From assembly GCF_900115365.1 (NCBI RefSeq), contig NZ_FOWD01000009.1:1-64000 (forward strand): 64,000 bases of DNA, given 5' to 3'. Every line of letters begins with the position of its first letter. Within the stretch, counting starts at the first letter, position 1. The stretch is from Anaerocolumna aminovalerica (GTDB taxonomy: Bacteria > Bacillota > Clostridia > Lachnospirales > Lachnospiraceae). The notes beneath the pieces were generated by a model, which searched no databases, was not told the DNA's origin, and worked only from the letters and a program-made list of their open reading frames with translations. The position numbers and the translations under genes are program-made. Positions 1 through 33,737 of the stretch are shown here, piece after piece.

Positions 1-16
1 TTGGGAACAGCGTAAG
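1..16 (+). repeat. hsdS recombination repeat, copy A (forward)
   Basis: TTGGGAACAGCGTAAG, encoding W-E-Q-R-K at the start of an HsdS target-recognition domain. The 15-bp core TGGGAACAGCGTAAG occurs five times: forward at 2 and 563; reverse at 2665, 3268 and 32042. The window starts exactly at this repeat. Confidence 0.85.
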
Positions 17-1144
17 GTTAAAGATGTATGTTCTATATCTACTGGCAAAAGCAACACTCAAGACCGAATTGATGGTGGAATATACCCACTTTATGTGAGA
101 TCTCCAATCATTGAGCATAGTAACAAGTACCTCTATGATGAAGAGGCAGTTTTAACAGTTGGAGATGGTGTCGGAACAGGTAAAGTATTTCATTATGTAA
201 ATGGAAAATATGACTTACATCAGCGTGTTTACAGGATGTTTGACTTTACAAAAGATATTACTGGTAAATACTTTTACTATTATTTTTCTAATCATTTTTA
301 TAACCGAGTTATGTCAATGACTGCAAAAACTTCCGTAGATTCTGTTAGATTTGAGATGATATCTGGAATGGATATTTTATTGCCTAGTAAAAAAGAGCAA
401 ATGGTAATAACAAGCTTTTTCGATAGCTTAAACAACCTTATCACCCTTCACCAGCGAAAATTGGATAGGTTAAAACAGCTGAAGCAAGGTTATTTGCAGC
501 AAATGTTTCCGAGAGATGGGGAAAGTGTGCCTAGATTGCGTTTCGCTAATTTTCATGGTAAATGGGAACAGCGTAAGTTGGGGGAATTGGTTGATACCGT
601 AAAATCATATCCACTTTCCCGTGAAGCAGAAGTAGGTGAACCGACTGGGTATCGATATATTCATTATGGAGATATTCATAAGAAAGTTGCGGATTTGATA
701 GAGTCTGACAAACAACTTCCCATTATTCAAGGTGGATATTATGAATTTCTTCAACAAGGCGATATAGTGGTAGCAGATGCTTCAGAAGATTATGTTGGGA
801 TTGCCGAACCAAGCATTCTACTAAAACAACCAACAGATAAAGTAGTAGCTGGTCTCCATACAATAGCAATGAGGCCCCAAGAAATTTGCTCTTTATTTTT
901 GTATTATCTACTTCATACAGTAGAATTTAAGCAATTTGGAAGCAGAATAGGAACAGGTATGAAAGTGTTTGGGATTACAACTAAAAATCTATATAAATTC
1001 CCAACTTTTTTTCCCAAAAAAGAGGAGCAAGTTAAAATTGGTAACTTTTTTAAACAGCTTGACAATACTATTGTTCTTCATCAATCAAAGTTAGATAGAC
1101 TAAAATCACTCAAAAAGGGCTATTTACAGAAAATGTTTATATAA
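2..1144 (+). CDS. hsdS: Type I restriction specificity subunit HsdS (5' end outside window)
   Basis: HsdS gives a type I restriction-modification complex its DNA target. The reading frame is open to the window edge, beginning W-E-Q-R-K at base 2. The first ATG (95) lies inside the first target-recognition domain, so the true start is upstream of the window. Domain order is TRD1 (about bases 2-420), a central conserved helical spacer ending LDRLKQLKQGYLQQMF, a second VPRLRF..WEQRK entry, TRD2 (about 585-1020), and a distal spacer LDRLKSLKKGYLQKMF. The central spacer lies in a 153-bp perfect inverted repeat shared with the silent hsdS at 2191-3282. A recombinase gene lies between them, so this is the expressed or expressible arm of an invertible specificity locus. 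In frame, the hsdS N-terminal stub after hsdM (32027-32107) would complete this gene. The assignment is firm; which gene supplies the start is unknown. Confidence 0.93.
   Translation, partial: WEQRKVKDVCSISTGKSNTQDRIDGGIYPLYVRSPIIEHSNKYLYDEEAVLTVGDGVGTGKVFHYVNGKYDLHQRVYRMFDFTKDITGKYFYYYFSNHFYNRVMSMTAKTSVDSVRFEMISGMDILLPSKKEQMVITSFFDSLNNLITLHQRKLDRLKQLKQGYLQQMFPRDGESVPRLRFANFHGKWEQRKLGELVDTVKSYPLSREAEVGEPTGYRYIHYGDIHKKVADLIESDKQLPIIQGGYYEFLQQGDIVVADASEDYVGIAEPSILLKQPTDKVVAGLHTIAMRPQEICSLFLYYLLHTVEFKQFGSRIGTGMKVFGITTKNLYKFPTFFPKKEEQVKIGNFFKQLDNTIVLHQSKLDRLKSLKKGYLQKMFI
432..584 (+). repeat. 153-bp perfect inverted repeat, left arm (hsdS central region)
   Basis: Identical in reverse complement to 2658-2810. 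It codes for the HsdS central spacer and the start of TRD2, and includes the 15-bp core at 563-577. It allows TRD2 exchange between the two hsdS copies by inversion. Confidence 0.93.
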
Positions 1145-1147
1145 TAC

Positions 1148-1176
1148 GAAAAAGGCACAAACTAAGTGCCTTTTTT
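1148..1176. terminator. Bidirectional terminator between hsdS and recombinase gene
   Basis: An A-run, stem GGCAC, 7-base loop, stem GTGCC and T-run form a rho-independent hairpin readable on both strands. It sits 4 bases after the hsdS stop and 8 bases from the end of the convergent recombinase gene. Confidence 0.8.
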
Positions 1177-1183
1177 GTATAAA

Positions 1184-2110
1184 CTACATTAACGCAGACA
1201 AATGTCGCATAATCTTATCATTATCTTGATTTTCAAGTTCACGAATAATATGTAAATACGTTTCTTGTGTTGTGGACATACTGGAATGTCCTAATCTTCT
1301 AGCAACACTGGCAATGGAAACACCTGCAAAAAGAAGTAGAGAAGCGTGGGTATGACGTAAACCATGAATTGTAATATTTGAAATACCTGCTTTACTACAA
1401 AGGGATTGCAAACGGTTGTTTACTGTTGAGTTAAAAACTCGTCCTTTTACAAAAATCGGTTTTTCATTTGGTAAGTGTTTTATAAGCCCTGAGAAATGCA
1501 TCGCCGTCTGCCAATCTAACTGAACTTTTCTTTCTGATGATTTATTTTTAGTTGGTTGAAATCCTCCTTTGGAAGATTTATAATCCCATGTTTTTTCAAT
1601 TGTTATCTTTTGATTTGTAAAATCAAAATCATCAGGAGTAAGAGCCAAAGCCTCTGAAAAGCGCATACCGGTTTTTACTATTAAAAAAATGAACCAATCC
1701 CAATTAATCTCGTCAGTTAAATTCAATTGTTTGAGCAAAGCTTGCACTTCAAACTGATTTAAAAATTTTGGCTTTTTCTCTTTAGGCATTTTACCTTTAA
1801 TAATCACTTTTCGAGTTGGATCTTGTTCAATCATTCCCTCCTCGATTGCATCAAGGATTGCTCCTTTTAACTGATGATGAAAATCCATAGTGGTCTGCTT
1901 TTCATGAGTGAGTGCATAGTCGTTTAGTAACTTTTGATATGTTTTCCGGGTTAAATCATGAACTTGTAAGTCAGGTGCTAACTCCATGATTCGTTGCTTG
2001 CTCATATAATATTTTTTTAAGGTAACAGATCGGATTGCGCCAACCTTATAAAGTTCAATCCATTCTCCAAAATATTCATGAAATAATTGTGATGTTTTTT
2101 TTCTTGCCAT
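1184..2110 (-). CDS. Tyrosine recombinase of the hsdS locus
   Basis: A site-specific recombinase/integrase of 308 residues, the usual length for the phage-integrase family. The C-terminal catalytic domain shows the box I arginine in TGMRFSEALAL, HGLRHTHAS (H-x-x-R) and GHSSMSTTQETYLH (second H and the tyrosine nucleophile). The N-terminal 150 residues look like a SAM-like DNA-binding domain. The start is supported by AGGAGG upstream. It lies between two oppositely oriented hsdS copies, the arrangement of known phase-variable type I systems, so its likely job is inversion at the hsdS repeats. It converges on hsdS across a shared terminator. It could instead be the integrase that brought the island, or do both. 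Family assignment is firm; substrate is inferred. Confidence 0.9.
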   Translation of the reverse strand: MARKKTSQLFHEYFGEWIELYKVGAIRSVTLKKYYMSKQRIMELAPDLQVHDLTRKTYQKLLNDYALTHEKQTTMDFHHQLKGAILDAIEEGMIEQDPTRKVIIKGKMPKEKKPKFLNQFEVQALLKQLNLTDEINWDWFIFLIVKTGMRFSEALALTPDDFDFTNQKITIEKTWDYKSSKGGFQPTKNKSSERKVQLDWQTAMHFSGLIKHLPNEKPIFVKGRVFNSTVNNRLQSLCSKAGISNITIHGLRHTHASLLLFAGVSIASVARRLGHSSMSTTQETYLHIIRELENQDNDKIMRHLSALM

Positions 2111-2190
2111 ATAAAAAACCTCCTAATAATATTTAGCGAATATATCACGATTATCTATTATTAAGAATTTTTTATGATTTGAAAAGAGGT

Positions 2191-3282
2191 TTAGGTAAAC
2201 ATTTTTTGCAAATAAGACTTTTTGAGTAATTTTAACTTATCCAACTGTGTTTGTTGAAAGGTGATTATTTCATCCATTTGTTCGAAGAAAGATCCTATTT
2301 TTTGTTGTTCCTCAAAGCATGGGAATGAACAAGCAATCTTTTCAATGGAAGTCTTGGATAAGCTTGGAACACCAGTTGACTCGTCCATCCTTTTCCACCT
2401 TATATTTTGGGATAATGAAAATAAAAACTTTAAGTCGTTATTAGGTAGAGATGTCATATAAAATAAAGTATCAACAGTCCAAAATGGAGCTTTCAAATAT
2501 TGGGGTTTATCTATTGTTCCTTTTCGACCAATTCCAATACCATCAACATCTGATAATTTATCATCTACAGATAACATATAGCCACCTGTTCCATAAACAG
2601 GAATATTTCCTTCATTTAGATGTTTATAATCTCTTCCTGAGTTGACTTTACAAATTGCCCCCAACTTACGCTGTTCCCATTTACCATGAAAATTAGCGAA
2701 ACGCAATCTAGGCACACTTTCCCCATCTCTCGGAAACATTTGCTGCAAATAACCTTGCTTCAGCTGTTTTAACCTATCCAATTTTCGCTGGTGAAGGGTG
2801 ATAAGGTTGTCGAGATGGTCTAAGTAAGCACCAATCTTTCTCTGCTCGTCAACACTTGGCAGTGATATTGAACACATGCATAATTTATCATAATAAAAAT
2901 ACAATCTCACCCCACCTTCCTGATATTGTTCTATAAGTTTTTGAAACGTATCAGACTTAAACCAGTACCAAAGAAATCTGTCATTAACTTCATCAGTAGT
3001 CTTAAAAACTTCGTAAAGTGAGCTAACAATCACGTTTTTAGCTAGATTTTGATAACCTATTGAACCAATATTTATTCTTGCAGGATTGTATGCAAAGGAT
3101 TGTGGTGAAACAATATAGTACATACTTTTGTCTGCATCTCTCATAGTTCCACCATTTTCAAATTGCTCATTTTGAGGGATAAATCCATTTTCATTGGAAA
3201 TAGAATAACTCTCATATGGCAGATTTTCTTTATTTTTTTCTCCCGCTAAATATGTTATATCTATAAACTTACGCTGTTCCCA
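2191..3282 (-). CDS. hsdS: Silent, start-less second HsdS cassette
   Basis: A second specificity gene in inverted orientation. The frame begins at the 15-bp core (W-E-Q-R-K-F) and reads two TRDs different from those at 2-1144, joined by an identical central spacer and ending LKLLKKSYLQKMF. Upstream of the repeat the frame meets TGA at 3328-3330 with no ATG, GTG or TTG between. The first internal ATG (3144) lies inside TRD1, so no full HsdS can be made from here. This fits a silent donor cassette activated by inversion. Outer inversion (copies at 1 and 3268) swaps both TRDs and inner inversion (432-584 with 2658-2810) swaps TRD2 only, giving up to four specificities. Nothing suggests decay within the frame. 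Confidence 0.85.
   Translation of the reverse strand, partial: WEQRKFIDITYLAGEKNKENLPYESYSISNENGFIPQNEQFENGGTMRDADKSMYYIVSPQSFAYNPARINIGSIGYQNLAKNVIVSSLYEVFKTTDEVNDRFLWYWFKSDTFQKLIEQYQEGGVRLYFYYDKLCMCSISLPSVDEQRKIGAYLDHLDNLITLHQRKLDRLKQLKQGYLQQMFPRDGESVPRLRFANFHGKWEQRKLGAICKVNSGRDYKHLNEGNIPVYGTGGYMLSVDDKLSDVDGIGIGRKGTIDKPQYLKAPFWTVDTLFYMTSLPNNDLKFLFSLSQNIRWKRMDESTGVPSLSKTSIEKIACSFPCFEEQQKIGSFFEQMDEIITFQQTQLDKLKLLKKSYLQKMFT
2658..2810 (-). repeat. 153-bp perfect inverted repeat, right arm
   Basis: Exact reverse complement of 432-584, including a 15-bp core copy at 2665-2679. Confidence 0.93.
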
Positions 3283-3283
3283 A
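3268..3283 (-). repeat. hsdS recombination repeat, copy D (reverse)
   Basis: Reverse complement of TTGGGAACAGCGTAAG at the head of the silent hsdS. It is inverted relative to copy A (1-16) and in the same orientation as copy B (32042-32057). Confidence 0.85.
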
Positions 3284-3400: not shown

Positions 3401-3576
3401 TACAGACAGAAGTTGTAGATAGTGTAAGAACCATTTTCAAAAATAGTCTTACTTCAAGTTATCTGATGGGGAAGCTCAGATTGTAAATGCGAAATATGGT
3501 ATGTAAATTACCTAACAACTATAGCTGAAAATCATATACGGAGTTTGGATAAAAATAATAAGTGGGAGGCATTACA

Positions 3577-6500
3577 TTGGCACGAATGAATTTTGAACAA
3601 GAGTCGGAAATGGAAAGGTTATTAATTAATCAGCTTACTACTGGAAATAGCGCATCAGGATATGCACAATGGGAATATAGAAAAGATTTAAATAGCGAAA
3701 ATAAATTATGGGATAATTTTCGTGAGATTCTTACGGATAAAAACTTGAGTGTTTTAGATGGTAATCCGATTACGGATCAAGAATTTGAACAAATTAAAAA
3801 TTTTATTTCGGGATTTAATACACCTTATGATGCTGGAAAGTGGCTTGCAGGTGAAAATGGTATATATAAAATTATCCTTACTAGAGAGGATGCTAGTCTT
3901 GGCAGAATTCCTTTGATTGTTGGAAGACGTGATGCAGTTGCAGGTGGTGATACGGTATATCAAGTAGTACATCAGGTGAAGCGGGATAAGGCAATATTTG
4001 AAGAACAAGATCGGAGGTTTGATGTAACTTTACTAATAAATGGATTGCCCATGATTCAAATTGAATTAAAGAGTCGAAGGCATGGCTATATGAAAGCATT
4101 TTACCAAATTGACAAATATATGAGAGAGGGCAAATACAGAGGAATATTCTCCACACTACAGATGTTTGTTATTAGTAATGGGAGTGAGTCCCGGTATATT
4201 GCTTCAAGTCATAAAATGAATTCTAAATTTTTGATAAAATGGGTGGACGAAAATAATAAGCCAGTAACGGAATACTTAGAGTTTGCTGAGGATGTATTAT
4301 CTATTCCTGCTGCCCACAATATGGTACTTCAATATTCTGTGTTAGATAGTGATAAAAAGAGTGTGATTTTGCTTCGCCCATATCAAATCCATGCTATAGA
4401 AGCGGTGAGAGAAGCCAGTAAAAGGCAAGAATCCGGATATATATGGCATACAACAGGTTCGGGAAAGACGTTAACGTCTTATAAGGTTGCCAGGAATTTA
4501 CTTCAAATCCCTGCAATTGAAAAAACTATATTTGTAGTGGACAGAACAGATTTAGATCAGCAGACAACAGAAGCATTTACGTCATATGCAGAAAATGATA
4601 TTATTGATGTTGATGAAACAAATAATACAAATAACTTGATTGATAGGCTTTATTCACAGGATCAAACTATGATAGTGACTACAAAGCAAAAAATAAATAC
4701 CATGTTAAATCGGTTTGAAACATGGAGAAAAGCAGATAGGAATATAAAGAAAATTGAACGCATAAGAAAGTTGAAAATAGCTTTTGTTGTTGATGAATGC
4801 CATCGTGCAGTATCGCCTCAACAAAAGAGAAAAATTGAGACTTTCTTTAAATCTTCTCTGTGGTATGGTTTTACAGGAACACCAATTTTCGGAGAAAACA
4901 AGAAAAAGACATTGGGAGATTTACCAGCTACTACTAAGGGACAATATGGAAAGGAACTACATAATTATACTGTGAAGGAAGCTATTGATGACAAGGCTGT
5001 TTTAGGCTTTCAAGTCGAATATAAGCACACATTAAGTGATGAAACGATAGATGATATTGTAAAGCAAGCCACAGGTAAGAATCCATGTGACTTAGAATCT
5101 GATGAAAAAGAAAAATTAATTCCTTCAAGTGTGTACGAAAATCAGGAACACATGATAGAGGTAATAAAATCAATTGTAAATAACTCTCGTAAAAAGTTGG
5201 GATTTGACAATGGAGTAGGACAAACCTATAATGCTATCCTTACTACATCTTCTATTAAACAAGCTCAAAAATACTATGAATTATTTAAAATGTTAAAGAA
5301 TGGTGAACTTGTTGATAAGGATAGAGAGATCGTTCAAATTGATGAAAAAACTAAAAGGGTATTGCCAGATTTCCCTAAAGTAGCGGTAACATACACTGTT
5401 TCTGAAAATGAGGAAGATAGTTCGCTAAATCAAGATAAAATGAAAGAATCAATCAAAGATTATAATGCAGAATTCGGCACTAAATGGTCTATAGAGAATA
5501 TTAAGGCATACAATGCAGATATTACTAAAAGAATGGCAAGAAAAGAGGATTACTATCAACTCCGCTCAAATCAGTTAGATATTGTTATTGTTAGAGATCG
5601 TATGCTTACCGGGTTTGACGCACCATGTTTATCTACAGTATTTATTGATAGACCACCGCAGCAGCTATATGATATTATTCAAACTTTTTCAAGAACTAAT
5701 CGACTTTATGATAGGAAAAAGACCTATGGACAGATTGTAACATTCAGAACACCATCAATTTATAAAAAGGAAGTTGATGCTGCATTATTGCTATATTCAA
5801 ATGGTGGAGAAGATTTCGTTTTAGCACCAACTTTTGAAGAAGCTAAGGAAGAATTTAAGAAGAGTATTGATAAATTAAGAAACCTTGCAGCAGAACCTAA
5901 AGATGCATTAAGCTTAAAAACAAAAGAAGAAAAGAAGAGCTTTGCAAAAGCGTTTCAAGAACTTGATAAATGGTTTTCTTCGATACAGGTTTATTCAGAA
6001 TATAATAGTGAAATCCTGTCTGTAGAGTATCAAATTACCGAAAAAGAAATAGTAGAATATTACGGTCATTATATTAATATCCTTGAAGATTTAAAGGGTA
6101 ATGGAGATGATGAGGATAATAGTGTCTTGGATATTGAATACGAATTAACATCAATTCGTACTGATGATGTGAATTATGAATACATTATATCTTTGATGCA
6201 ATCCTTTATACCTCTTGCTAGTGAAGATATTTCGGTTAATAATGTATATAGCTTGCTATCAAAAGATGACACTATTATGTCAAAAGTTGCTGAAGAAGAG
6301 GTTTTTAATTATGTTGCACAACCGATAAAAGAAAAAAGTCGTGAGGAAATTGATAAATACATTAATGATTTAAGTGTTCGTAATCCTAAATTAGGCAGCG
6401 TCATGATGCAGTTGTGGTTTGAGATTCAAATGAATGCATCAAGGTTTGAGAATAAGAGTGTTCTAAGTGTTTTAAATGATATGATAGAGCAAACTATTGA

Positions 6501-6756
6501 TGATACTATTAGAAAAGTGTCCGATAAATGGTTTGTGGGATATGAAGAGTTAAAGTTTTATCTGGAAAACTATAGGGAAAAACGCGATAAGCAGGTAGGA
6601 GAGACTCAGCTTACAAATTCTCAGAGTTACGAGGCATATAAAAGGAATTCGTCAAATCCTTTACCAAATAAAATAAAGTATAACAAAAAACTTCGCGAAG
6701 AAATCTATCCACAGATTTTACGTGATGTGATTTTGCCGCTGAGGAATCGCCGATAA
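3577..6756 (+). CDS. hsdR: Type I restriction endonuclease subunit HsdR
   Basis: The ATP-dependent translocase and nuclease subunit of a type I system, about 1060 residues, full length for the family. The N-terminal PD-(D/E)xK nuclease is visible as FDVTLLINGLPMIQIELKSR. The SF2 helicase motor has Walker A (HTTGSGKTLTS), a DECH box (VVDECHRAV), GFTGTPIF (motif III) and QTFSRTNR (motif VI). The helical C-terminal domain follows. The long frame opens at GTG 3562, but GGGAGG at 3564-3569 places the start at TTG 3577. It has its own candidate promoter. It normally acts with HsdM2HsdS1; the only hsdM in the window is 26 kb away on the other strand. It is followed immediately by an ecfT fragment. 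Confidence 0.95.
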   Translation: MARMNFEQESEMERLLINQLTTGNSASGYAQWEYRKDLNSENKLWDNFREILTDKNLSVLDGNPITDQEFEQIKNFISGFNTPYDAGKWLAGENGIYKIILTREDASLGRIPLIVGRRDAVAGGDTVYQVVHQVKRDKAIFEEQDRRFDVTLLINGLPMIQIELKSRRHGYMKAFYQIDKYMREGKYRGIFSTLQMFVISNGSESRYIASSHKMNSKFLIKWVDENNKPVTEYLEFAEDVLSIPAAHNMVLQYSVLDSDKKSVILLRPYQIHAIEAVREASKRQESGYIWHTTGSGKTLTSYKVARNLLQIPAIEKTIFVVDRTDLDQQTTEAFTSYAENDIIDVDETNNTNNLIDRLYSQDQTMIVTTKQKINTMLNRFETWRKADRNIKKIERIRKLKIAFVVDECHRAVSPQQKRKIETFFKSSLWYGFTGTPIFGENKKKTLGDLPATTKGQYGKELHNYTVKEAIDDKAVLGFQVEYKHTLSDETIDDIVKQATGKNPCDLESDEKEKLIPSSVYENQEHMIEVIKSIVNNSRKKLGFDNGVGQTYNAILTTSSIKQAQKYYELFKMLKNGELVDKDREIVQIDEKTKRVLPDFPKVAVTYTVSENEEDSSLNQDKMKESIKDYNAEFGTKWSIENIKAYNADITKRMARKEDYYQLRSNQLDIVIVRDRMLTGFDAPCLSTVFIDRPPQQLYDIIQTFSRTNRLYDRKKTYGQIVTFRTPSIYKKEVDAALLLYSNGGEDFVLAPTFEEAKEEFKKSIDKLRNLAAEPKDALSLKTKEEKKSFAKAFQELDKWFSSIQVYSEYNSEILSVEYQITEKEIVEYYGHYINILEDLKGNGDDEDNSVLDIEYELTSIRTDDVNYEYIISLMQSFIPLASEDISVNNVYSLLSKDDTIMSKVAEEEVFNYVAQPIKEKSREEIDKYINDLSVRNPKLGSVMMQLWFEIQMNASRFENKSVLSVLNDMIEQTIDDTIRKVSDKWFVGYEELKFYLENYREKRDKQVGETQLTNSQSYEAYKRNSSNPLPNKIKYNKKLREEIYPQILRDVILPLRNRR

Positions 6757-6952: not shown

Positions 6953-7024
6953 GTTGTTGGTACCCGTTGTTGGTACCCGTTGTTGGTACCAGGCACCATT
7001 TTTACCGGTGCCTGGCACCAACAA
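6953..7024 (+). repeat. GTTGTTGGTACC / GGTGCCTGGCACC repeat cluster
   Basis: Three tandem 14-base units (GTTGTTGGTACCCG), then GGTACCAGGCACC, a short AT stretch, and GGTGCCTGGCACCAACAAC, giving a strong hairpin. Relatives occur at 36385-36431 beside the intact ecfT, and a weaker one at 13127-13170. Confidence 0.75.
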
Positions 7025-7047
7025 CCGGCATTTTTAAGGAGGACAGT

Positions 7048-8793
7048 ATGGACATACAATTTTTAGGTGGTGCATTAGAGATTGGCGGAAGTGCCATCCT
7101 ATTGCACATAGATGGTAAGAATATGTTACTGGATGCTGGTATCAGGCAAGGCATGAGTAAAGATACTTTACCGAATTACAGGGTGATTCAAGAGAGTGGA
7201 GGATTGGATGCTATTATTATTAGCCATGCCCATCTAGATCATATCGGAAGCCTGCCTATCATTAGTTAGGAATATCCTAGTGCCAGAATCTAAATGAATC
7301 ATATGACTATGGATTTAGTACGTGTGCAGCTTTATGATAGTTTAAAGATTATGAACAATCGGGAAGCGGAGATACCTTTGTATGCAGAGCAGGATGTTGT
7401 TAGTACTTTAAATCGAATATTTCCAATCGGGTATGAGGTTAAATTTCCCATATTCGAAGATATGTTCCTTACATTATATAATGCTGGACATATTGCAGGG
7501 GCCAGCTTTTGTTATATTCAGGGAAAAGAGGGTGCCTTGTTTTACTCTGGAGATTTTTCTGCATTTTCACAAAAAAGTATTGAAGGGGCTAAGTTACCGA
7601 AGCTAAGGCCGGACGTAGCTATTGTTGAGAGTACTTATGGAGACCGATTACATTCCAATCTTGAGATAGAAGAGAAAGCGTTAGTGGACTTTGTAAATGA
7701 AGCCATGGAGAATAACGGAAAGGTTCTTATCCCTGCATTTGCACTAGGAAGAGCACAAGAAGTTATATTGATTTTAAAAAGTGCTTTGAATAAGGGACAA
7801 TTAAAGAATGTTAAAGTTTATGTAGATGGCTTGGTTCGTGATGTGAACCGGGTTTATAATAGAAATCCCATTTACCTAAAGAAATCTTTAGGTAAAAAAG
7901 TTTTAAAAGGATTGGAACCTTTCTACGATGATAATATTGTGGAAGTAAAACCAAATGACAACCGTGAAGAACTGTTAAAGGAGCAGCAGGTAGTATTTGT
8001 TGCAAGTTCAGGTATGCTCACCGGAGGACCTAGTGCTTATTATGCGGAAAAGATAGCACCCATGGAAAACGGCTATATTGCAATAACCGGTTATCAGGAT
8101 GAGGAATCGCCGGGAAGGCAATTGTTGGACCTTCTGGAGGCGAAAGAAGACCGATATCTAAAGTTAAATGGAGTTGGTTTTCCTGTCAAGGGCCAGATAA
8201 AGAAGATTGGGCTTTCTGCCCATTCCGATAAAAGTGAAATCAAAGGATTAATTGATCGGTTATCTGCAAGAAATGTAATTCTGGTACATGGTAATAATGA
8301 AGTGGTTAGGAATCTTGGACAAGAGATGGCAGCCGATTATAAGGGAAGAATATTTACACCGGAATGTGGGGAACAAATTCATATAGAGATTCGCAATCCT
8401 AGAAAGCAGCTAAAGAAACACATTCCATATGTAATGAATCATAGTGAGGAACTATCTGAGAAGCTCATGTCTCATTTCTATGAATATATGACAGAACACT
8501 ATGGTAATAGATTATTTACTCTGGAAGAACTTTACTATATCTGGCATGGGGTAAATTGCTATGAAGATGAGCAAATGAAAGGGTTTAAAGCACTCATCAT
8601 GGAAAGTGTTTATTTTGAAAGCGATGCCAGAAGGCTGTTCTTGTGGAAAGCAAGGGATAAGCAAGACGTAGAAGAAGATTTAAAGGAAAAAGAGTTAAAC
8701 CAACAGCAGTTAACGTTAATTATTGAGGAATTATTTAAAGAATTCCCTATAAGAAGATTAGTTTTAATATGGAACAAAAGAAAGTTCAATTAG
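7048..8793 (+). pseudogene. Beta-CASP metallo-beta-lactamase (CPSF/Ysh1-like nuclease), broken by two stop codons
   Basis: RBS AAGGAGG and ATG 7048 start an MBL-fold protein with the metal motif SHAHLDHIG. The same frame then meets TAG (7267) and TAA (7291), eight codons apart, and reopens at ATG 7294. The second part has the remaining family landmarks: GHIAGASF, FYSGDFS, PAFALGRAQEV, the beta-CASP region, GYQDEESPGRQ, LSAHSDKSE and VHGNNE. Intact relatives process RNA. Because both stops are in the original frame and the catalytic HxHxDH lies before them, the downstream piece (499 residues) cannot be active alone. A frameshift probably follows at about 8770-8790, where the frame switches into the next entry. 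This is decay, unless readthrough occurs. Confidence 0.85.
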
Positions 8794-9544: not shown

Positions 9545-9772
9545 ATGATTGCTGTAAGGTGCTTTAATTTAATTTCGGAATACCAAAAGCCAGGAAAGGA
9601 TAAGGTAGATATTGAGTTTTTTTCCTTGTATAAAGATTTGGAAACAAAAAAGATTTTATGTGAATCTGCAAAAGATATTGTTAAATCAATAGATTGGAAT
9701 AACTCAGCTCTGTTGCACAAAGGTTTATCCTGGATTACACAAAATTATTTGAGACTTAATTGCATAATATAA
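9545..9772 (+). CDS. Small unrecognised ORF, possibly a gene remnant
   Basis: A 75-residue frame with no clear RBS. The stretch from about residue 12 (SEYQKPGKDKVDIEFFSLYKD) through CESAKDIVKSIDWNNSALLHKG has protein-like composition. Just upstream a different frame starts MKFSIHDCCKVL and stops, so this may be a frameshifted small gene. It lies directly before a terminator, so transcription from the MBL unit probably ends here. No function is proposed. Confidence 0.35.
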   Translation: MIAVRCFNLISEYQKPGKDKVDIEFFSLYKDLETKKILCESAKDIVKSIDWNNSALLHKGLSWITQNYLRLNCII

Positions 9773-9816
9773 ATTTAAGGACTACTTCATTTTGGAGTGG
9801 TCCTTTCTTAAATTTA
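9770..9816 (+). terminator. Rho-independent terminator-like hairpin
   Basis: AAATTTAAGGACTACT pairs with AGTGGTCCTTTCTTAAATTT around a short loop. It separates the decayed MBL region from the deoR operon. Confidence 0.65.
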
Positions 9817-9863
9817 TGCTTTATAGGGCGATTAGGGATAGACAGTTACGTTTTGTTTACATT

Positions 9864-9971
9864 TGTTCGATTCTATTTTACCATCTAAAACAGCCTCTAC
9901 AAAACGAACAATTATACCAGCTTTATTGACAATTTTCCATGATATTTATATAATATGAACGTAAACGAACA
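9864..9971 (+). promoter_or_regulatory. deoR-dtnK operon promoter with candidate operators
   Basis: TTGACA (9926-9931), a 17-base spacer and TATAAT (9949-9954) form a consensus sigma-A promoter 74 bases before the deoR start. AAACGAACA occurs as a direct repeat at 9902-9910 and 9963-9971, flanking the promoter, with TGTTCG inverted at 9864-9869. Repeats bracketing the promoter suit a DeoR repressor and looping. Promoter is well supported; operator role is inferred. Confidence 0.75.
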
Positions 9972-10027
9972 TAATAGATAAATAGATAATGAAATTCTAT
10001 TTTATTTACAATCAGAGGAGTGAAACA

Positions 10028-10771
10028 ATGTTTGCAGAAGAGAGGCGAACCCAGATTATTAACATCATACGTGAGACAGGAACGGTCCAGGTGGAGCAGC
10101 TGGCAAAGAAATTGGATGTAAGTCTTATGACCATTCGGAGAGATTTGGAAAAACTCCGGCAGGAGGGTATCATTGAGAGATGTCATGGAGGTGCTATCTT
10201 AAAAAGAGAAGTAGCTTATACGAAGAAACGGACATTGCAGATGGAGGAAAAAGAAAAAATAGCGGATAAGTGCGCCCAGTATGTTAAGAGAGGCAACACA
10301 GTTTTTTTGGATGCAGGTACAACCACTTATGAGATTGCCAAGCGAATTCGTGATATCCCCTCTATTACGGTTATTACCAATGACTTAGAGATTGCCATGC
10401 TCCTTATGGAATCGGATGTGAATCTATTGGTGTGCGGGGGAAATGTTCAGAAATCTACAGGAAGTATGCTTGGAGACTTTGCCAATCAGATGGTAGAAGA
10501 ATTAAGGACAGAGATTGCATTTATTGGCGCTGCCTCCATAGACGATGAGTATAATGTTTTAACTCCCACATCTAAAAAGGCTGTATTAAAACGCCTAATA
10601 TGCAAATATGCCAACCGTTCCTATCTGGCAGTGGATCATACTAAGTTTGGAAAACAGGCACTAATTAAAGTCAATCATTTAGCAGATTACTCCGGAGTTA
10701 TAACCAATAAAGTTTTTGGTGAAGAGGATGATATATTAAAGCAAAGAAAAATCAACATTATTCAGGTGTAA
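10028..10771 (+). CDS. DeoR-family transcriptional regulator
   Basis: A repressor of 247 residues. The N-terminal winged helix-turn-helix reads ERRTQIINIIRETG...VSLMTIRRDLEKL, followed by ERCHGGAIL. The C-terminal DeoRC sugar-phosphate sensor domain (ISOCOT fold) has DAGTTTYEIAK, VITNDLEIA and LAVDHTKFG. The frame opens at ATG 9989, but GAGGAGTG before ATG 10028 and the family start (MFAEERR) fix the start there. It heads an operon with an acid-sugar kinase 13 bases downstream, a PdxA2-like dehydrogenase and a GntP permease. It probably represses its own operon and responds to a phosphorylated four-carbon intermediate. The ligand is not visible from sequence. Confidence 0.92.
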   Translation: MFAEERRTQIINIIRETGTVQVEQLAKKLDVSLMTIRRDLEKLRQEGIIERCHGGAILKREVAYTKKRTLQMEEKEKIADKCAQYVKRGNTVFLDAGTTTYEIAKRIRDIPSITVITNDLEIAMLLMESDVNLLVCGGNVQKSTGSMLGDFANQMVEELRTEIAFIGAASIDDEYNVLTPTSKKAVLKRLICKYANRSYLAVDHTKFGKQALIKVNHLADYSGVITNKVFGEEDDILKQRKINIIQV

Positions 10772-10784
10772 AGGAGGAGTTCCT

Positions 10785-12083
10785 ATGGCACAATGTGTAG
10801 TTATAGCAGATGATTTAACCGGAGCCAATGCCACGGGTGTATTACTAAAAAAACTTAGATTTACAGCATATACCGTAATGAATGCAGAAAGGCTTGACTT
10901 GAAATTGCTGTCAGACACCGATTGTATTGTATATCCTACAGATAGCAGGGCAGTGGATGCAGAGATAGCTTATAACCGTGTTTATAATGTAGTCAAATTA
11001 TTGAAGGATAATAATATAAAACTATATACCAAGCGTATTGACAGTACTTTAAGAGGAAACTTGGGAAGTGAAACAGATGCTTTTTTAGATGCATTATCCA
11101 ATCAGTCCATGGCGATAGTTGTACCTTGTTTTCCACAAGCCAGTCGTATTGTGGCAGGCGGGTATATGCTTGTAAATACAGTTCCGCTGCACAAAACAGA
11201 AGTTGCCCTGGATCCCAAAACTCCTATTCACACCTCTTATGTACAAGATTTATTTAAAGAACAGTCCAAATATCCGGTTGCCTCTTTGCAGATTAATGAC
11301 ATTATGTTAGGAAAAGAACACATAGCAGAAAAGATTAAAGAATATAAACATTTGGGTGTTAGAATCCTAATCTTTGACTGCATATCAAATGAGGATTTAG
11401 ATACTATTGCAGATGGAGTAATAAAAAGCAAAGTTCCATTTATAGCAGTTGATCCGGGCACCTTTACAGCAGCACTTTCAAGGAAGCTGATGAAACAAAA
11501 AGAGGGTAACAGTAAAGTACTAATTACCATAGGAAGTGTAAATGGAGTAGCCAAAATGCAGGTTGATGAATTGTTGCTTGCACAAAAAGTACTTCCAGTA
11601 TTTGTGAATGTGAAAGAACTGGTGGAAGGAGAAGAGAGAAGAACAGCTGAAATGAACCGTGTAGTAGAAGAGGTTCTAAATAGCGGCAGGAATCAGGAAG
11701 TTTGTGCTGTGATAGGCAATGGTATTCTTCCGGAAAACCGTATTGACTTAACCGTATATGCCAGACGTTTTTATGTGGAAAAAGAAGATATCAGCAATTT
11801 GATTAATGATTCCTTTGCTGAAATCACCTATCAGATTCTCCTTAGGAATCAGGAATTTAAAGGTTTGTATTCCAGTGGTGGAGATATTACGGTTGCAATT
11901 AGCAAGAAATTTAATTCAGCCGGTATTCGTTTGCTGGGAGAGGTAGTACCTTTGGCAGCTTATGGGGAATTTATCGGCGGAGTATTTGAGGGATTAAAAG
12001 TGGTCACCAAAGGAGGAATGGCAGGAGATAAAAATGCATTGAATCAGTGTATTCATTATTTAAAAGAACAATTATATATGTAA
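10785..12083 (+). CDS. dtnK: Four-carbon acid-sugar kinase, probable D-threonate kinase (DUF1537)
   Basis: 432 residues with DUF1537 N-terminal landmarks (VVIADDLTGANATG, TKRIDSTLRGN) and C-terminal nucleotide-binding landmarks (YSSGGDITVAI, TKGGMAGD). The family phosphorylates C4 acid sugars at O4. The immediate partner is a PdxA2-type dehydrogenase with no separate sugar-acid dehydrogenase. That combination is the published D-threonate pathway: D-threonate to D-threonate 4-phosphate, then to dihydroxyacetone phosphate and CO2. RBS AAGGAGGAG precedes the ATG. D-erythronate is the main alternative substrate. Family firm, substrate inferred from context. Confidence 0.88.
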   Translation: MAQCVVIADDLTGANATGVLLKKLRFTAYTVMNAERLDLKLLSDTDCIVYPTDSRAVDAEIAYNRVYNVVKLLKDNNIKLYTKRIDSTLRGNLGSETDAFLDALSNQSMAIVVPCFPQASRIVAGGYMLVNTVPLHKTEVALDPKTPIHTSYVQDLFKEQSKYPVASLQINDIMLGKEHIAEKIKEYKHLGVRILIFDCISNEDLDTIADGVIKSKVPFIAVDPGTFTAALSRKLMKQKEGNSKVLITIGSVNGVAKMQVDELLLAQKVLPVFVNVKELVEGEERRTAEMNRVVEEVLNSGRNQEVCAVIGNGILPENRIDLTVYARRFYVEKEDISNLINDSFAEITYQILLRNQEFKGLYSSGGDITVAISKKFNSAGIRLLGEVVPLAAYGEFIGGVFEGLKVVTKGGMAGDKNALNQCIHYLKEQLYM

Positions 12084-14867: not shown

Positions 14868-17800
14868 TTGATTATTCAGCATAATATACAAAGCATGATG
14901 ACCAATAGACAATTGGGGATTACTAATAATATAGGAATGAAATCAACAGAAAAGCTTTCAAGTGGATATAAAATAAATCGTGCAGCAGATAATGCAGCAG
15001 GATTAACCATATCAGAAAAGATGAGAGCGCAGATTAGAGGACTTGAACGTGCTACGGATAATGCTTTGGATGGTGTCAATTTCATCCAGGTTGCAGATGG
15101 AGCAATGGATGAAATTACTATAATGATTCAAAGAATGAGGGAACTTACGATTCAGGCATTAAATGATACCTATTCATTACAGGACAAAGCAATTATTGCA
15201 CAAGAAATAGAAGAATGTCAGTCTATGATAGATAATATTTGTAAGCAGACAGAGTACAATACAATTAATGTATTTGAGAAGCATCAGGATACATATTATA
15301 GTATTGAAGGTAGTAAACAGTGGGACCCTGCACAGATACAGGTGATAGAAGAACCTGACAATGATTTGATTATTTATTTGCCTGACGAGTATGTGCCATC
15401 AACCTATCAAATTCGTGTGCCAAGTGGAGTATACACAACTCAGGAGCTAGTGGATGAAATTGATACTGCGTTTGAGAATATGGTTCCGGGGAATCCGGGA
15501 TTTGTATTAGAGTATACGGAAGATGGATATTGTAACCTTAATTTTGAAGGCGGAAAAGACGTGAAAAGTGTTGAGGGCCATTTATCTGGTCTGATCTATG
15601 GAAGAAATAATGGAAGTGGATATGGAAGGCTGGTTGGAACTACACAGTTTGAAGCAGGATGGCCATTAAGTATCGTAAACGGTAAAAACGATACGATTAC
15701 ATTTTATACAGAAACTGCCCATGGGACAGATAGTAAAAAAGTTTCGTTAACAATTCCATCTGGCTCCTATACGAGAGAAGAATTGATTAATATAATAAAT
15801 AATACACTATCAGCACAGAACCTAGAGGGAATAGTGGCTAAAGAATATGGTGAGAAATCGATTCAACTCTCAGCAGGATCTAATGTTGTAACCGGGCTAA
15901 AAGGCAATATGTTTGCTATTGATGAAGGTAAGCCATATACTTCGGTATTTTATGATAATGTAAAAAGTGGTAATTCAACCATGACACCTGCTTCCATCAG
16001 TGGAAAAGCTTATTATCGTGATTCTTCCAGTACCAGTAAAATAGTGATAGGCAGTGATAATAATACTTTACGATTCTCGGTAAACAACTTAGATTATCAG
16101 CAAATAACAATTGATGATGGTGAATACACAATAAGAGAACTTGCCGATCAGTTAAATGAGAAGCTAGGTGGTACAAGTTTAATTGCTTCTGCGGAAACTA
16201 TTAATACCTATATTCCAGGGACAACCGGCTCAGGGACCTATGATTATTTAAAGTTAACGTCTACATTGGAGGGCAGTGCCAGTACACTTTTATTTGACAG
16301 AAGTAGTGCGCTATTTAGTAAAACCTATGAGGCACTTTTCTGTGATACAACGGTATCTTCGGTAGATGAACCCTATCTCTATAATGGAGTCACAGTAGAC
16401 CCAAGTTTAACAGGTGCAAAATCCTTATCTGGAGGGATTAATCTTGCAAAAGGCGCTACATCTTTGAATTTAACTGTAAATGGAGATAATTATTCCTTAA
16501 ACCTGAGTAAGACTTCCTATTCATCTTTAGATGAACTAATACTAGAAATCAATTCTCAAATTAGTAACGCTGGGATAGGAATTAAGGATAAGATTCAAGT
16601 ACAAAATTATGGAAATCGAATTCAATTTGTTGCAATAGATGATAGCATAAATAGCATTCAATTTAATCCAGTCAATAAGGGTAGTGCCTATCAAGCATTG
16701 TTTCAAAATTCAGCGGATGAAATAAATTATTTCTACAAAACCGATAATGGGGTTGAGGACGGGGTAGAAGGTAGTACAAAACCTACCGTATTGAAACCAG
16801 CGTCTATTAATATGGGGCATACGTTAAGCAGCAGTATAACAATTAATGATAGCAATAATAGATTCAATATTACAGTAAATGATGTGACGAGATCTATACT
16901 TCTCACCAATGGGACTTATTCCCGTTCCCAGTTGGTTGCGGAGATAAATAAACAGTTTACCAATAATAATATTAAGGTGACAGCTTCACTAGAGAGCAAT
17001 GGATCTCTAACCTTTACAACCATAGAAAAGGGGAACAGAGCGAAACTGAATATAAGCAGTGATTTTGGCGGTTCAGCTATGAAGGTTTTTGTTGGTTCCC
17101 ATATACAAACCACCGATGCTACCTCAACGAACAGAAACATAACAGCTTCCTATATACAGGGAAAGAGCGTATCATTTCCACTAGCGTTAGATTCTACAAA
17201 CAAAAATCTTAATTTTGTTTATAAGGTAAATGGAGCATCAATAGATCTAAATATTGAACTGCCGGAAGGAGAATATAGTGCTGCTACTCTAAAAACTGAA
17301 TTACAATCTACTATTGATTCTCAGATTGGTACTAACCAATTAGTCGTCCAGGTAGATGCAAATGGTATTCTAATTAAGGCGGTTAATGCAGGTGACAAAT
17401 ACCGTTTGACTGGATTTACAGGTGGCTTTTATGAATATGTATTAAGCAAAAGAGAAGAAGTTACAAGCACACAAACTCCAGCATTACAACAAGGAACTCA
17501 TTCATTTCATGAAGCTTATGTAGTGGGAAGACAAGATTTAAGGAATCAGGTAACAGAAGTTGTGAAAGATAGAAATGATAAATTCATGATGGACTTTACC
17601 TATGTTGATCCAAGTAATGCATCCAATACATTAGAATTAGAATTAAGCGTAATCATAGAGCCCGGAGTATATCAGGGGGATGAATTGGCGCAATACCTGG
17701 AAGATAAGCTGAATGCAGAACTAATCAATCATGGTATTGACAATGTGAGGATAGAATCAGCAATTGGAGGAATAAATACTGGTGTAGTAGGAGCAGTGGA

Positions 17801-18679: not shown

Positions 18680-19063
18680 TTGGAACTTACCATTGATGAA
18701 GTAAAAAATAGGAAGTCTGGTTTTATCTGTACCAATGTACAAGAAACAGATTTAGCAGGACATAGTCAGAATTCCAGATGGTATAAAGAATTATTGGAAA
18801 TTGCGGATGAAAAGATTGGAGAAATCATAACACTGTTAAAGGAAGAAGACATATTAGTAGTTATGGCTGACCATGGAAATGACCCCAATATCGGACATAA
18901 CAGGCATACAAGAGAAAATGTTCCATTGCTGATTTATAAAAAAGGAATCACAGGTGTATCACTTGGACTGAGAAGCTCGCTGTCAGATGTTGGAGCAACC
19001 GTATGTGAGTATTTCAACGTAAAGCAGCCACAAAATGGTAGTTCATTTTTGCGGTTTTTATAA
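18680..19063 (+). pseudogene. Phosphopentomutase (DeoB) C-terminal remnant
   Basis: 127 residues matching the last third of the alkaline-phosphatase-superfamily mutase: ETDLAGHSQNSRWY, VVMADHGNDPNIGHNRHTRENVPLLIY and LSDVGATVCEYF. The metal ligands in ADHGND and HTRE are present, but the N-terminal two thirds with the catalytic threonine and cap domain are absent. The start would be an unsupported TTG. The fragment sits 33 bases after the flagellin stop with no RBS, so it is a gene remnant at an insertion boundary. The frame is undamaged, so truncation may be recent. Confidence 0.85.
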
Positions 19064-31590: not shown

Positions 31591-31752
31591 CTATGAAGGA
31601 TGGAAGGTTATATAAATAATTTTACATCTTCCAAGGTTTTAAATGTAATTTCCTATAGATCTGGAATAATATGTATATGAAGCAACCCTTATTAACCAGC
31701 TTATATTAATAAGTAATCAACTTTATGATTTTTGGTTAGTTTGTAAGATAAT

Positions 31753-31838
31753 AAAGAGAAGAATTGAAGCACATCTGCAAATGTTAGTCTATTTTTGCCT
31801 AACATTTAAGATACACTTCAGATATTCTTCTCTTTTTT
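31753..31838 (+). terminator. Long imperfect hairpin with T-run
   Basis: The outer stem AAAGAGAAGAAT pairs with ATTCTTCTCTTT. The middle TGAAG/CTTCA and inner AAATGTTAG/CTAACATTT also pair, spanning 86 bases and ending in TTTTTTT. It ends the yibE/F unit or is a small structured element. Confidence 0.65.
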
Positions 31839-31894
31839 TAATAGATTAAAGTAATAAAATATAAAAGGTATTATATAAAAGTAATAAAAATATA

Positions 31895-31923
31895 TTGACA
31901 ATATAACAACTAAAATATACAAT
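31895..31923 (+). promoter_or_regulatory. Near-consensus promoter facing the hsdS breakpoint
   Basis: TTGACA, a 17-base spacer, then TACAAT. It points at the hsdS repeat copy B (32042) and then runs antisense to hsdM. No sense ORF follows before the repeat. Apart from this and the preceding hairpin I see nothing in 31591-32026. Confidence 0.6.
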
Positions 31924-32026
31924 ATAACAAAGAGTTGATAATATTAATGCAAAAATATAACCAAAATAGTTGTTTAGTAAGAACTATCTTTGCTTTCAGC
32001 TAAATTAAATACATAAAAATATTTTT

Positions 32027-32107
32027 TTAAGGGAAGAGACACTTACGCTGTTCCCAATCGTCAGTAAACCCCTTAAATCTTATCTTTGGCACCCTATCAT
32101 TATTCAC
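32027..32107 (-). pseudogene. hsdS N-terminal stub, truncated at the recombination repeat
   Basis: GTG at 32107 overlaps the hsdM stop, as is usual for translationally coupled hsdM-hsdS. It reads VNNDRVPKIRFKGFTDDWEQRK, then only C-L-F-P and a stop. The HsdS homology ends exactly at TGGGAACAGCGTAAG. The frame is the same as that of hsdS at 2-1144 across the repeat, so joining the two would give a full specificity subunit of about 400 residues. As it stands hsdM has no downstream specificity domain. Confidence 0.9.
32042..32057 (-). repeat. hsdS recombination repeat, copy B (reverse)
   Basis: Reverse complement of TTGGGAACAGCGTAAG. It is inverted relative to copy A (1-16) and direct relative to copy D (3268-3283). 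Confidence 0.85.
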
Positions 32108-33737
32108 TTTTCTCACCATCCTCTTCTATCTTTTCCATATCTTCCTCCATCAAATTGTTAATAGCACTTTTTAGTTCTGCTTTTGATTCATCATCATTCC
32201 CAACTAATTCTTGAAGCATTTCTATTAATGATTCTTGTGAGCTCTTTATCTCTTTTGTAATTTTTGCAATCTCTGCCGTAACTTCACCTAAATCTATTGG
32301 TTCTTCTTCCTCAAAAGTATCCACATAGCGAGGAATATTGAGATTGAAATCATTTTCCTTTATTTCATCAAAGGAAGCCAAATAGGCAAATTTATCAATA
32401 GTTATTCTTTTCATATACGCATCAAGTATCTTATCTAAATGCTCGTCATTCATTGTATTCTGTGCTTTACCCTTTTTAAATTCTTTTGAAGCATCAATAA
32501 ATAGTACATCACGTTTTTCACGTTCTTTCTTCTTAAGGATGATTACAGTGGTAGGAATACTTGTATTGTAGAAGATTCCTGCTGGCATTCCAATAACAGT
32601 ATCGATTGCACCATCTTCTAATAACTTCTGGCGAATCTTTCCTTCAGCATTTCCTCTAAACAATACGCCATGAGGTAAAACAATAGCCATTACACCAGTA
32701 TTCTTAAGGTGGTAGAACCCGTGCAGCAAAAAGGCATAATCCGCTTTAGATTTTGGTGGAAGTGCCCCATACATACTAAATCTTGGGTCTGTCATAAATC
32801 CTTTGTCCGCACTCCAATTCGCTGAGTAGGGAGGATTCATGACAACTGCATCAAAATTTGTAGGTTCATCAACTGGCCAATCCTTGTCAAGAGTATCTCC
32901 ATTATGAAGATTTTGATTTTCAACAGGTACGCCATGAAGTATCATATTCATTCGTGCAAGATTGTATGTTGATGTGTTTAACTCTTGTCCAAAATATATT
33001 ACTGTATTGGCTTCGTTTGAACACTTCTTAGCATTTAACATAAGGGAGCCGGATCCCATAGCAGCATCATATATCGTAAATCCCGATACATCTTTTTTAC
33101 CATTGAATACAATTTGGGTCATTAATTTTGACACTGGTTGTGGTGTATAGAACTCGCCAGCCTTTTTTCCTGTGTCACTTGCAAATTCACCTATCAGATA
33201 TTCATATGCATCACCTAACATATCACCTTCATGAACGGTAATATTAATCTGTGACAACTCTTGCATTACATTAGATATCATTTGATTTCTTTTCGGTGGT
33301 GTATTTCCAAGTTTTGTTGAATAAATATCCAAATCCTGAAATAAGTCTTTAAATGTCTCATCTGATTGTTCAATATCTCTAAATCCTTGAGATAGTTCTT
33401 CTAATTGAAAGGTATTATCATTTATTTTATTAATCAAGGCAGTAAAAGTCAAATCTGGTTTTAAAACAAAGGATATTTGATGTTTCAATTCAGAAACTAA
33501 GTCATTTCTCATACTCTCATCTTCGTAATTTTTCCTATAAATTTCTAATGCTTCATCTAATGTGTTCGCTTTTTCATCTAATAAATCCACTAAGCTATAA
33601 AGTAATTTATCAGACAGATATTTATAAAAGATAAGTCCTAAAAGATAACTTTTATAATCTTCAGCTCCCATTGTTCCCCTCATTACATTTGCACTATTCC
33701 AAAGTGCTGTTTTTAAATCTTTTGTGCTTTCACTCAT
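32100..33737 (-). CDS. hsdM: Type I DNA methyltransferase subunit HsdM
   Basis: 545 residues. An N-terminal HsdM helical domain (MSESTKDLKTALWNSANVMRG, FYKYLSDKLL) is followed by an adenine methyltransferase domain. This has the AdoMet motif YDAAMGSGSLML near residue 225 and the catalytic NPPY in FDAVVMNPPYSANW near 305, so it is an N6-adenine methylase. The frame extends 30 codons upstream, but AAAGGAGAG before ATG 33737 and the family N-terminus fix the start. Downstream, hsdS is only a stub. Upstream lie remains of an ATPase/TOPRIM pair. hsdR and full hsdS cassettes lie 26-32 kb away on the opposite strand. Confidence 0.95.
   Translation of the reverse strand: MSESTKDLKTALWNSANVMRGTMGAEDYKSYLLGLIFYKYLSDKLLYSLVDLLDEKANTLDEALEIYRKNYEDESMRNDLVSELKHQISFVLKPDLTFTALINKINDNTFQLEELSQGFRDIEQSDETFKDLFQDLDIYSTKLGNTPPKRNQMISNVMQELSQINITVHEGDMLGDAYEYLIGEFASDTGKKAGEFYTPQPVSKLMTQIVFNGKKDVSGFTIYDAAMGSGSLMLNAKKCSNEANTVIYFGQELNTSTYNLARMNMILHGVPVENQNLHNGDTLDKDWPVDEPTNFDAVVMNPPYSANWSADKGFMTDPRFSMYGALPPKSKADYAFLLHGFYHLKNTGVMAIVLPHGVLFRGNAEGKIRQKLLEDGAIDTVIGMPAGIFYNTSIPTTVIILKKKEREKRDVLFIDASKEFKKGKAQNTMNDEHLDKILDAYMKRITIDKFAYLASFDEIKENDFNLNIPRYVDTFEEEEPIDLGEVTAEIAKITKEIKSSQESLIEMLQELVGNDDESKAELKSAINNLMEEDMEKIEEDGEKSE

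What the first reader, a model, noticed from the sequence alone, without database searches (positions are those of the whole stretch)
1..33737. Type I restriction locus apparently split by a ~32-kb inversion at hsdS repeats
Seen: hsdM (-) is followed by 22 hsdS codons that stop exactly at TGGGAACAGCGTAAG (copy B, 32042). A full hsdS frame begins at the same repeat at position 1 (copy A), in the opposite orientation and in the matching codon phase. Inverting 1-32057 on paper gives hsdM-hsdS-recombinase-hsdS'-hsdR all in canonical order. Known: recombinases shuffle hsdS in many bacteria, but over 1-3 kb. Inference: the same recombinase (or repeat) has flipped a 32-kb block carrying flagellin, nucleotide and transport genes. 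The block would then be an ON/OFF switch for restriction, with hsdM left without a specificity subunit in this phase.
Basis: partly seen in the sequence, partly recalled or inferred. Interest (0 to 1): 0.85.

Follow-up and report, generated by a model that had tools for sequence, protein, structure and literature searches.

The report
Restriction locus apparently split by inversion
In this bacterial genome a DNA-shuffling site that normally swaps a restriction system's target-recognition gene appears to have flipped a 32,000-base block instead, cutting the methylase gene off from its partner; it is a long-range variant of a known switch, and sequencing reads are needed to prove it is not an assembly slip.

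Summary
hsdM (32100-33737, -) runs into 22 hsdS codons ending exactly at TTGGGAACAGCGTAAG (32042-32057); the rest of hsdS starts at the same 16 bp at position 1, inverted and in phase. Joined on paper they give a 397-aa frame; the present junction gives 26 aa. Position 1 is a contig end. The 15-mer occurs 5 times in the readable genome, all in this contig, and marks the hsdS switching point of many related loci, some with the same recombinase. GC skew and gene strand flip at the junction, without such a flip in complete relatives.

Best reading: recombination at the hsdS site inverted 32 kb, leaving the system without HsdS in this phase. Not shown: that it switches back, or which enzyme did it. 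Weak points: the sequence left of position 1 was not found; no relative shows the parental order; a lone outward site 32 kb away is needed (the next largest opposite-orientation span among 61 genomes is 6.3 kb). Assembly misjoin remains possible (about 20%). New variant of a known kind.

The parts
1..16 (+). recombination site copy 1 (T + TGGGAACAGCGTAAG), first bases of contig C63
2..1144 (+). hsdS body without start codon (380 aa, opens WEQRK)
   Evidence: Methylase_S
432..584 (+). left arm of the 153-bp perfect inverted repeat in the middle of hsdS
563..577 (+). site copy 2 (inside the 153-bp arm)
1184..2110 (-). tyrosine recombinase, 308 aa
   Evidence: Phage_integrase; integrase/Xer structures; 57-73% identical recombinases in 12 of 80 related hsd loci
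2191..3282 (-). silent hsdS' cassette (363 aa, no start codon)
2658..2810 (-). right arm of the 153-bp inverted repeat
2665..2679 (-). site copy 3
3268..3283 (-). site copy 4 at the outer end of the silent cassette (16-bp match to copy 1)
3562..6756 (+). hsdR, 1064 aa
6967..31590 (+). cargo of the inverted block: beta-CASP nuclease, sugar-acid kinase-like and PdxA-like proteins, giant flagellin, YibE/F transporter (Pfam); DeoR-like, dGTPase-like and 5'-nucleotidase-like by eye only
31895..31923 (+). near-consensus promoter TTGACA-17-TACAAT reading into the junction (now antisense to hsdM)
   Evidence: 11 of 12 letters; the region as a whole has fewer such matches than shuffles
32027..32107 (-). 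truncated hsdS: 22 codons + CLFP + stop (26 aa)
32042..32057 (-). site copy 5, junction of the hsdM-hsdS start with non-hsdS sequence
32100..33737 (-). hsdM, 545 aa, one match in the readable genome

Best explanation
This is a specificity-shuffling Type I restriction-modification locus with its own tyrosine recombinase. Its ordinary work would be small inversions between hsdS and the silent hsdS' (at the 15/16-bp site and at the 153-bp repeat that contains it), giving four possible HsdS proteins. In the sequenced DNA the same site has recombined with a copy 32 kb away in opposite orientation, turning bases 17-32041 around. hsdM now reads into a 26-aa stump, hsdS has neither start nor methylase partner, and restriction-modification should be off in this state; a promoter at 31895-31923 now points into hsdM antisense. 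Shown: site identity, phase, truncated product, strand/skew reversal, canonical order elsewhere. Inferred: inversion as the event, the locus recombinase as its agent, the OFF phenotype, and reversibility (least certain).
For: 16-bp perfect inverted match with the hsdS phase kept across it. 15-mer 5 times in the readable genome, all in this contig, 0.003 expected. The same 15-mer marks hsdS in relatives: 31 of 80 fetched hsdM loci hold it (the best 80 of 584 or more); 44 of 397 family genomes hold it against 1 of 397 (my count) for the reversed pattern; 19 of 391 class genomes. Recombinases 57-73% identical occur in 12 of the 80 loci, and 10 of these 12 hold the exact site. L061 has the un-split order with sites +, +, -. 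In G253 the same sequence follows hsdM's hsdS start in one contig and a non-coding flank in another, an indirect sign of switching at this site. Skew: 8 of 8 4-kb bins of 1-32 kb positive, 22 of 24 bins of 32-126 kb negative; ORFs of 150 aa or more: 12 of 12 in the block on +, 59 of 68 beyond 34.5 kb on -. In four complete relatives syntenic to the right part, skew keeps one sign in 39 of 40 10-kb bins, in G010 and G009 also past the place that matches the junction, so no origin or terminus is seen there. The transporter next to the junction lies on the strand that agrees with local skew in 4 of 4 relatives examined (of 6 with orthologues of 81% identity or more).
Against: No sequence left of position 1, so one of the two new junctions is unseen; of 164 ends of the other 82 contigs 94 were readable and tested, and no partner was recognised. 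The parental order needs a site 32 kb downstream facing outward with no hsdS body behind it; none of 60 other genomes with the site shows an opposite-orientation span above 6.3 kb. 21 of the 31 site-bearing loci show no recombinase of 57% or more in the stretch fetched (many stretches are cut by contig ends). In no relative examined are the block and the right part neighbours; in G010 the transporter is at 4.58 Mb and the right part at 5.4 Mb, so other rearrangements occurred and 'block inverted' rests on skew and strand, not on a sister genome. If the small inversion were frequent, a contig break at 3268 would also be expected and is absent. For the pneumococcal locus one paper reports switching without any known recombinase (PMC6620402, abstract), so the agent is uncertain. 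No reads, no methylome.
Confidence: 0.62

Rival explanations
1. Assembly artefact: the hsdM side and the block's right end were wrongly joined at the switching site, and the chromosome really reads hsdM-hsdS-int-hsdS'-hsdR. Assemblies do break at this site, as a mixed population would cause.
For: The contig itself starts with the site, as do contigs in G232, G044 and G518 (4 of 61 genomes, own included, have a contig whose first site is at base 1-2); hsdM contigs end on the last base of the site in L095 and L096 (L096 and G232 are probably the same record). So this is a place where assemblers fail.
Against: A 16-bp overlap is shorter than what assemblers normally join on (own knowledge, no call); contig C63 has no N; and a misjoin would still need the site to sit at the end of the intergenic sequence at 32041. 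The failures seen elsewhere here are breaks, not false joins.
Confidence: 0.2
2. A real but fixed rearrangement: the locus was broken once and is now a relic, not a switch.
For: No sister genome shows the other state; the genus shows repeated rearrangement around these genes; the lone site at 32042 has no hsdS body behind it.
Against: hsdM, hsdR, int and both hsdS bodies are open frames and the block has kept a skew opposite to its surroundings, which argues for a recent event; the 153-bp arms are 100% identical, which fits ongoing recombination.
Confidence: 0.14
3. The 32-kb junction is the replication terminus and the opposite gene strands are natural; hsdM was simply inserted or moved there.
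For: Genes on both sides point at the junction, as at a terminus.
Confidence: 0.04

Closest known systems
Streptococcus pneumoniae SpnIII / cod locus with PsrA (PMC4948785 and PMC7096588, passages read)
   Same: Type I hsdM/hsdS with further hsdS copies, a locus tyrosine recombinase, a 15-bp inverted repeat (IR1) plus longer repeats that contain IR1-like sequence. HsdM here is 65-66% identical to HsdM of fetched S. mitis-group loci (whether those are the SpnIII locus was not tested).
   Different: TGGGAACAGCGTAAG is absent from the fetched S. mitis-group loci L057-L060 and L075, where no recombinase match was seen either; pneumococcal inversions described in the passages stay within the locus; here one arm is 32 kb away and hsdM is cut off.
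Enterococcus sp. MJM12 locus L061 and Jeotgalicoccus nanhaiensis L106
   Same: Same 15-bp site in + and - orientation, recombinase 65% and 73% identical, hsdS with an inverted second copy; L061 also has the gene order of the re-inverted window.
   Different: hsdM is directly upstream of hsdS; outer opposite sites 2.6 and 3.4 kb apart.
Acetitomaculum ruminis L096 / G232
   Same: Same site; hsdM lies between two opposite sites and its contig ends exactly at the site, so hsdM itself could be flipped away from an hsdS.
   Different: Spans 1.9 and 4.3 kb; the known flank is a non-coding stretch followed by hsdS, the other lies beyond the contig end.
Staphylococcus aureus hsdMS chromosomal inversion (PMC6778178; abstract and passages read)
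   Same: Large inversion through Type I RM genes, reversible, not affected by recA loss.
   Different: 1.42 Mb, between two hsdMS copies sharing 1,748 bp; here one hsdM and 16 bp.

Membership tests
Recombination-driven phase-variable Type I RM (SpnIII/cod type) | hsdR, hsdM, hsdS of Type I | tested here: met
   Pfam; PADLOC
Recombination-driven phase-variable Type I RM (SpnIII/cod type) | at least two hsdS with inverted repeats | tested here: met
   153-bp and 15-17-bp inverted repeats between 2-1144 and 2191-3282
Recombination-driven phase-variable Type I RM (SpnIII/cod type) | locus-encoded tyrosine recombinase | tested here: met
   Phage_integrase E 1.1e-23; relatives of 57% or more in 12 of 80 hsd loci
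Recombination-driven phase-variable Type I RM (SpnIII/cod type) | hsdM adjacent to an expressible hsdS (a feature of the ON state) | tested here: not met
   In the assembled phase hsdM is followed by a 26-aa stump; met only after re-inversion on paper. So the locus works like the family and has its parts, but is not filed as an intact member in this phase
Recombination-driven phase-variable Type I RM (SpnIII/cod type) | switching observed in a population | not testable with these tools
   no reads; seen indirectly in another genome, G253
S. aureus-type hsdMS chromosomal inversion | two hsdMS copies with kilobase inverted homology | tested here: not met
   one hsdM match in the genome; homology 16 bp

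The most novel reading that the evidence does not exclude
A reversible 32-kb switch: recombination at the hsdS site flips a whole chromosomal block that carries restriction, recombinase, flagellin, nucleotide and transport genes, turning the restriction-modification system fully off (not just re-aimed) and at the same time moving a promoter (31895-31923) from the gene beyond the block onto the antisense strand of hsdM.
Probability: 0.28. Interest if true: 0.75.

Novelty: new variant of a known kind. Interest (0 to 1): 0.47.

Why it matters
The REBASE survey of inverting Type I systems used repeats of at least 20 bp within 30 kb of hsdS and says that it misses shorter or farther ones; it also argues that hsdS genes more than 30 kb apart would not make up a single inverting locus (PMC7394358: abstract, passages and the whole Discussion read). 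A 16-bp site 32 kb away falls outside both limits. If real, hsdS recombination can act over tens of kilobases with 16 bp, can produce a null state rather than a new specificity, and can invert unrelated genes. It also suggests a practical marker: contigs that start or end exactly on TGGGAACAGCGTAAG point to switching hsd loci in draft genomes.

Tried and rejected
Looked for the sequence left of position 1. (a) Gene order in relatives: what follows the transporter is different in G009, in G004 and in G011/G012 (G010 and G014 not looked at for this); in the own genome the G004 neighbour genes sit inside contig C55 behind unrelated genes. (b) Contig ends: the left ends of all 82 other contigs were fetched, eight of them masked; right ends only for contigs under 20 kb. 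94 readable ends of 164 were tested for 9 or more bases of the site within 60 bp: three hits, C18 end (10 bases) and C72 and C73 starts (9 bases), which I take for chance or transposon sequence (C61-C81 were at first only printed). (c) Second copy of the junction DNA: no second copy of the hsdM/hsdS-start part was listed. (d) The promoter's likely gene: similar DNA (80% over 93 bp) lies upstream of a gene in C28 that by its sequence looks like a sugar-binding protein; none of its 16 matches in the genome lies at a contig end that I could recognise. (e) Block and right-hand genes as neighbours in relatives: not in the stretches fetched. (f) Terminus or origin: not supported. (g) A published case of the same size and mechanism: searches gave the S. 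aureus case; other listed papers on large inversions (PMC5065196, listing; PMC3055811, passages) concern other repeats. The library holds open-licence papers only.

L094 looked like a second hsdM joined to a stop, but hsdS homology resumes in another frame and the sequence has a run of N: set aside.

One search was a failed filing (wrong field format).
Full report
WHAT IS THERE. The window is the first 64,000 bases of contig C63 (126,382 bp) of a 4.62-Mb, 83-contig draft. From position 1: an hsdS body lacking its start (2-1144, +), a tyrosine recombinase (1184-2110, -), a silent hsdS' (2191-3282, -), hsdR (3562-6756, +), then about 25 kb of unrelated genes on the + strand, an intergenic stretch (31591-32041), and hsdM on the - strand (32100-33737). 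hsdM is followed by hsdS from GTG 32107 for 22 codons, ending on the last base of TTGGGAACAGCGTAAG; the next codons are TGT CTC TTC CCT TAA, so the present product is 26 aa.

THE REPEAT. The 16 bp at 1-16 and 32042-32057 are perfect inverted copies. TGGGAACAGCGTAAG occurs five times in the readable assembly, all here, at 2 and 563 (+) and 2665, 3268 and 32042 (-); 0.003 would be expected by base composition and the reversed pattern occurs 0 times. It encodes WEQRK, an hsdS motif seen in most related loci printed for which a site was found, so protein conservation explains part of its recurrence. Two copies lie inside a 153-bp perfect inverted repeat. Joined on paper, 22 codons + body give 397 aa and 22 codons + silent body give 380 aa, both open.

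THE SITE IS A SWITCHING SITE. Of 80 hsdM loci fetched (the best 80 of 584 or more), 31 hold the exact 15-mer. In 24 of them a script printed the exact site right after hsdM: 2 contigs end on its last base (L095, L096), 1 (L094) runs into a stop by frameshift, 21 read on without a stop in what was printed. Recombinases 57-73% identical to the window's occur in 12 loci; 10 of these hold the site, while 21 of the 31 site loci show none in the stretch fetched. In 397 genomes of the family 44 hold the site (reversed pattern: 1, my count of the table), in 391 of the class 19; own genome is in both; 61 distinct genomes together. In the 18 loci the upstream side is either an hsdS start (PKIRFKGFTDD-like) or a flank that does not look like one. 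In G253 one contig has hsdM, hsdS start, site, CTATCGG... and another has a non-hsdS flank, site, CTATCGG...; the 40 bases printed after the site are identical and both contigs end 61 bp after it, as a mixed population would give. Contigs whose first site is at base 1-2 occur in 4 of 61 genomes, the window's among them; right ends were not checked systematically. So a contig start at position 1 is itself a sign of a switching junction, and the first base of C63 is exactly where the hsdM context (...GACGA|TTGGG) and the silent context at 3268 (...TTAC|TTGGG) begin to agree. That reading uses my own knowledge of how assembly graphs break.

THE 32-KB BLOCK IS THE WRONG WAY ROUND FOR ITS SURROUNDINGS. 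GC skew is positive in 8 of 8 4-kb bins up to 32 kb (0.046 in the first) and negative in 22 of 24 beyond (exceptions 44-48 kb and 80-84 kb); ORFs of 150 aa or more are + in 12 of 12 between 6.8 and 31.7 kb and - in 59 of 68 beyond 34.5 kb. The right part is collinear with complete relatives (45-117 kb in G010; roughly 64-115 kb in G009, G008 and G014, with 90-108 kb unmatched); there the skew keeps one sign in 39 of 40 10-kb bins (G014 has one bin at -0.016), including, in G010, about 32 kb past the last collinear gene on the side of the junction and, in G009, about 58 kb. A natural origin or terminus at the junction is therefore unlikely. The YibE/F transporter next to the junction has orthologues of 81-87% identity in six relatives; in the four examined (G009, G010, G012, G014) it lies on the strand that agrees with local skew. 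In C63 it agrees with the skew of the block but not with that of the neighbouring 94 kb. Against this: in no stretch fetched from relatives are block and right part neighbours, so the comparison shows orientation, not ancestral adjacency.

A STRANDED PROMOTER. At 31895-31923 (+) lies TTGACA-17-TACAAT, 11 of 12 consensus letters, the best of 9 promoter-like matches in a region where shuffles give 14.1, so the match alone proves nothing. But 93 bp around it are 80% identical to DNA in contig C28 (75578-75670) about 200 bp upstream of a gene that looks like a sugar-binding protein. In C63 it points into the antisense of hsdS and hsdM; before an inversion it would have pointed at whatever gene followed. 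This is inference and that gene was not found.

HOW IT MOST LIKELY WORKS. Shown: the parts, phase, truncated product, site and strand reversal. From published work on PsrA (PMC7096588, PMC4948785; passages read): a locus tyrosine recombinase inverts DNA between 15-bp repeats in hsdS genes and acts at longer repeats that contain such a sequence. A contrary report (PMC6620402, abstract) finds pneumococcal switching without any known recombinase, and the 2016 paper found two of three inversions intact without psrA. The window has the same architecture. Inferred: the same reaction joined site 1 to a copy 32 kb away. The result is a null state: hsdM without HsdS, hsdS without start, hsdR apart. How the outer site came to be there is open: it has no hsdS body behind it, and the five other genomes with opposite sites on one contig have spans of only 4.2-6.3 kb.

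ALTERNATIVES. Assembly error is the main rival (about 20%): the place is error-prone, yet the failures seen elsewhere are breaks, and a join on 16 bp with no N would be unusual. A fixed relic is possible (14%): all frames are open and the 153-bp arms identical, which argues for recency. Terminus: 4%.

KNOWN OR NEW. hsdS shuffling by inversion is well known. A megabase inversion through duplicated hsdMS genes is published for S. aureus (PMC6778178; abstract and passages). The REBASE survey searched repeats of at least 20 bp within 30 kb (PMC7394358). I found no paper describing an hsdS-site inversion of tens of kilobases that detaches hsdM (searches; open-licence library only). I rate it a new variant of a known kind.

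Noticed in passing
14868-18647 (+): Giant flagellin: Flagellin_N at residues 3-139 and Flagellin_C at 1174-1258 with about 1,000 residues between that match no Pfam family at E <= 0.001.
   Followed up: no
18680-19063 (+): Fragment of a metalloenzyme-superfamily protein (127 aa, profile positions 136-251 of 252), apparently a truncated gene behind the flagellin.
   Followed up: no
6967-7269 and 7294-8793 (+): Beta-CASP/RMMBL nuclease whose metallo-beta-lactamase N-terminal part is a separate ORF, so the gene looks interrupted; only 25-29% identical matches in 14 other genomes searched.
   Followed up: no
34565-36283 (-): AAA ATPase (best PADLOC hits HEC-01A, AriA, PtuA, AbiLi, GajA) beside a 172-aa protein without Pfam or PADLOC match, directly beyond hsdM: a possible second defence module.
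   Followed up: partly
L096 (Acetitomaculum ruminis DSM 5522), 9753-11659: hsdM lies between two opposite copies of the same 15-bp site with its contig ending on the site, so here hsdM itself may be the flipping segment.
   Followed up: partly
L274/L275 (G253 contigs C28 and C13): Two contig ends carry the same sequence after the site, one fused to hsdM and the hsdS start, one to a flank that is not an hsdS start: apparently a switching population preserved in a draft assembly.
   Followed up: yes
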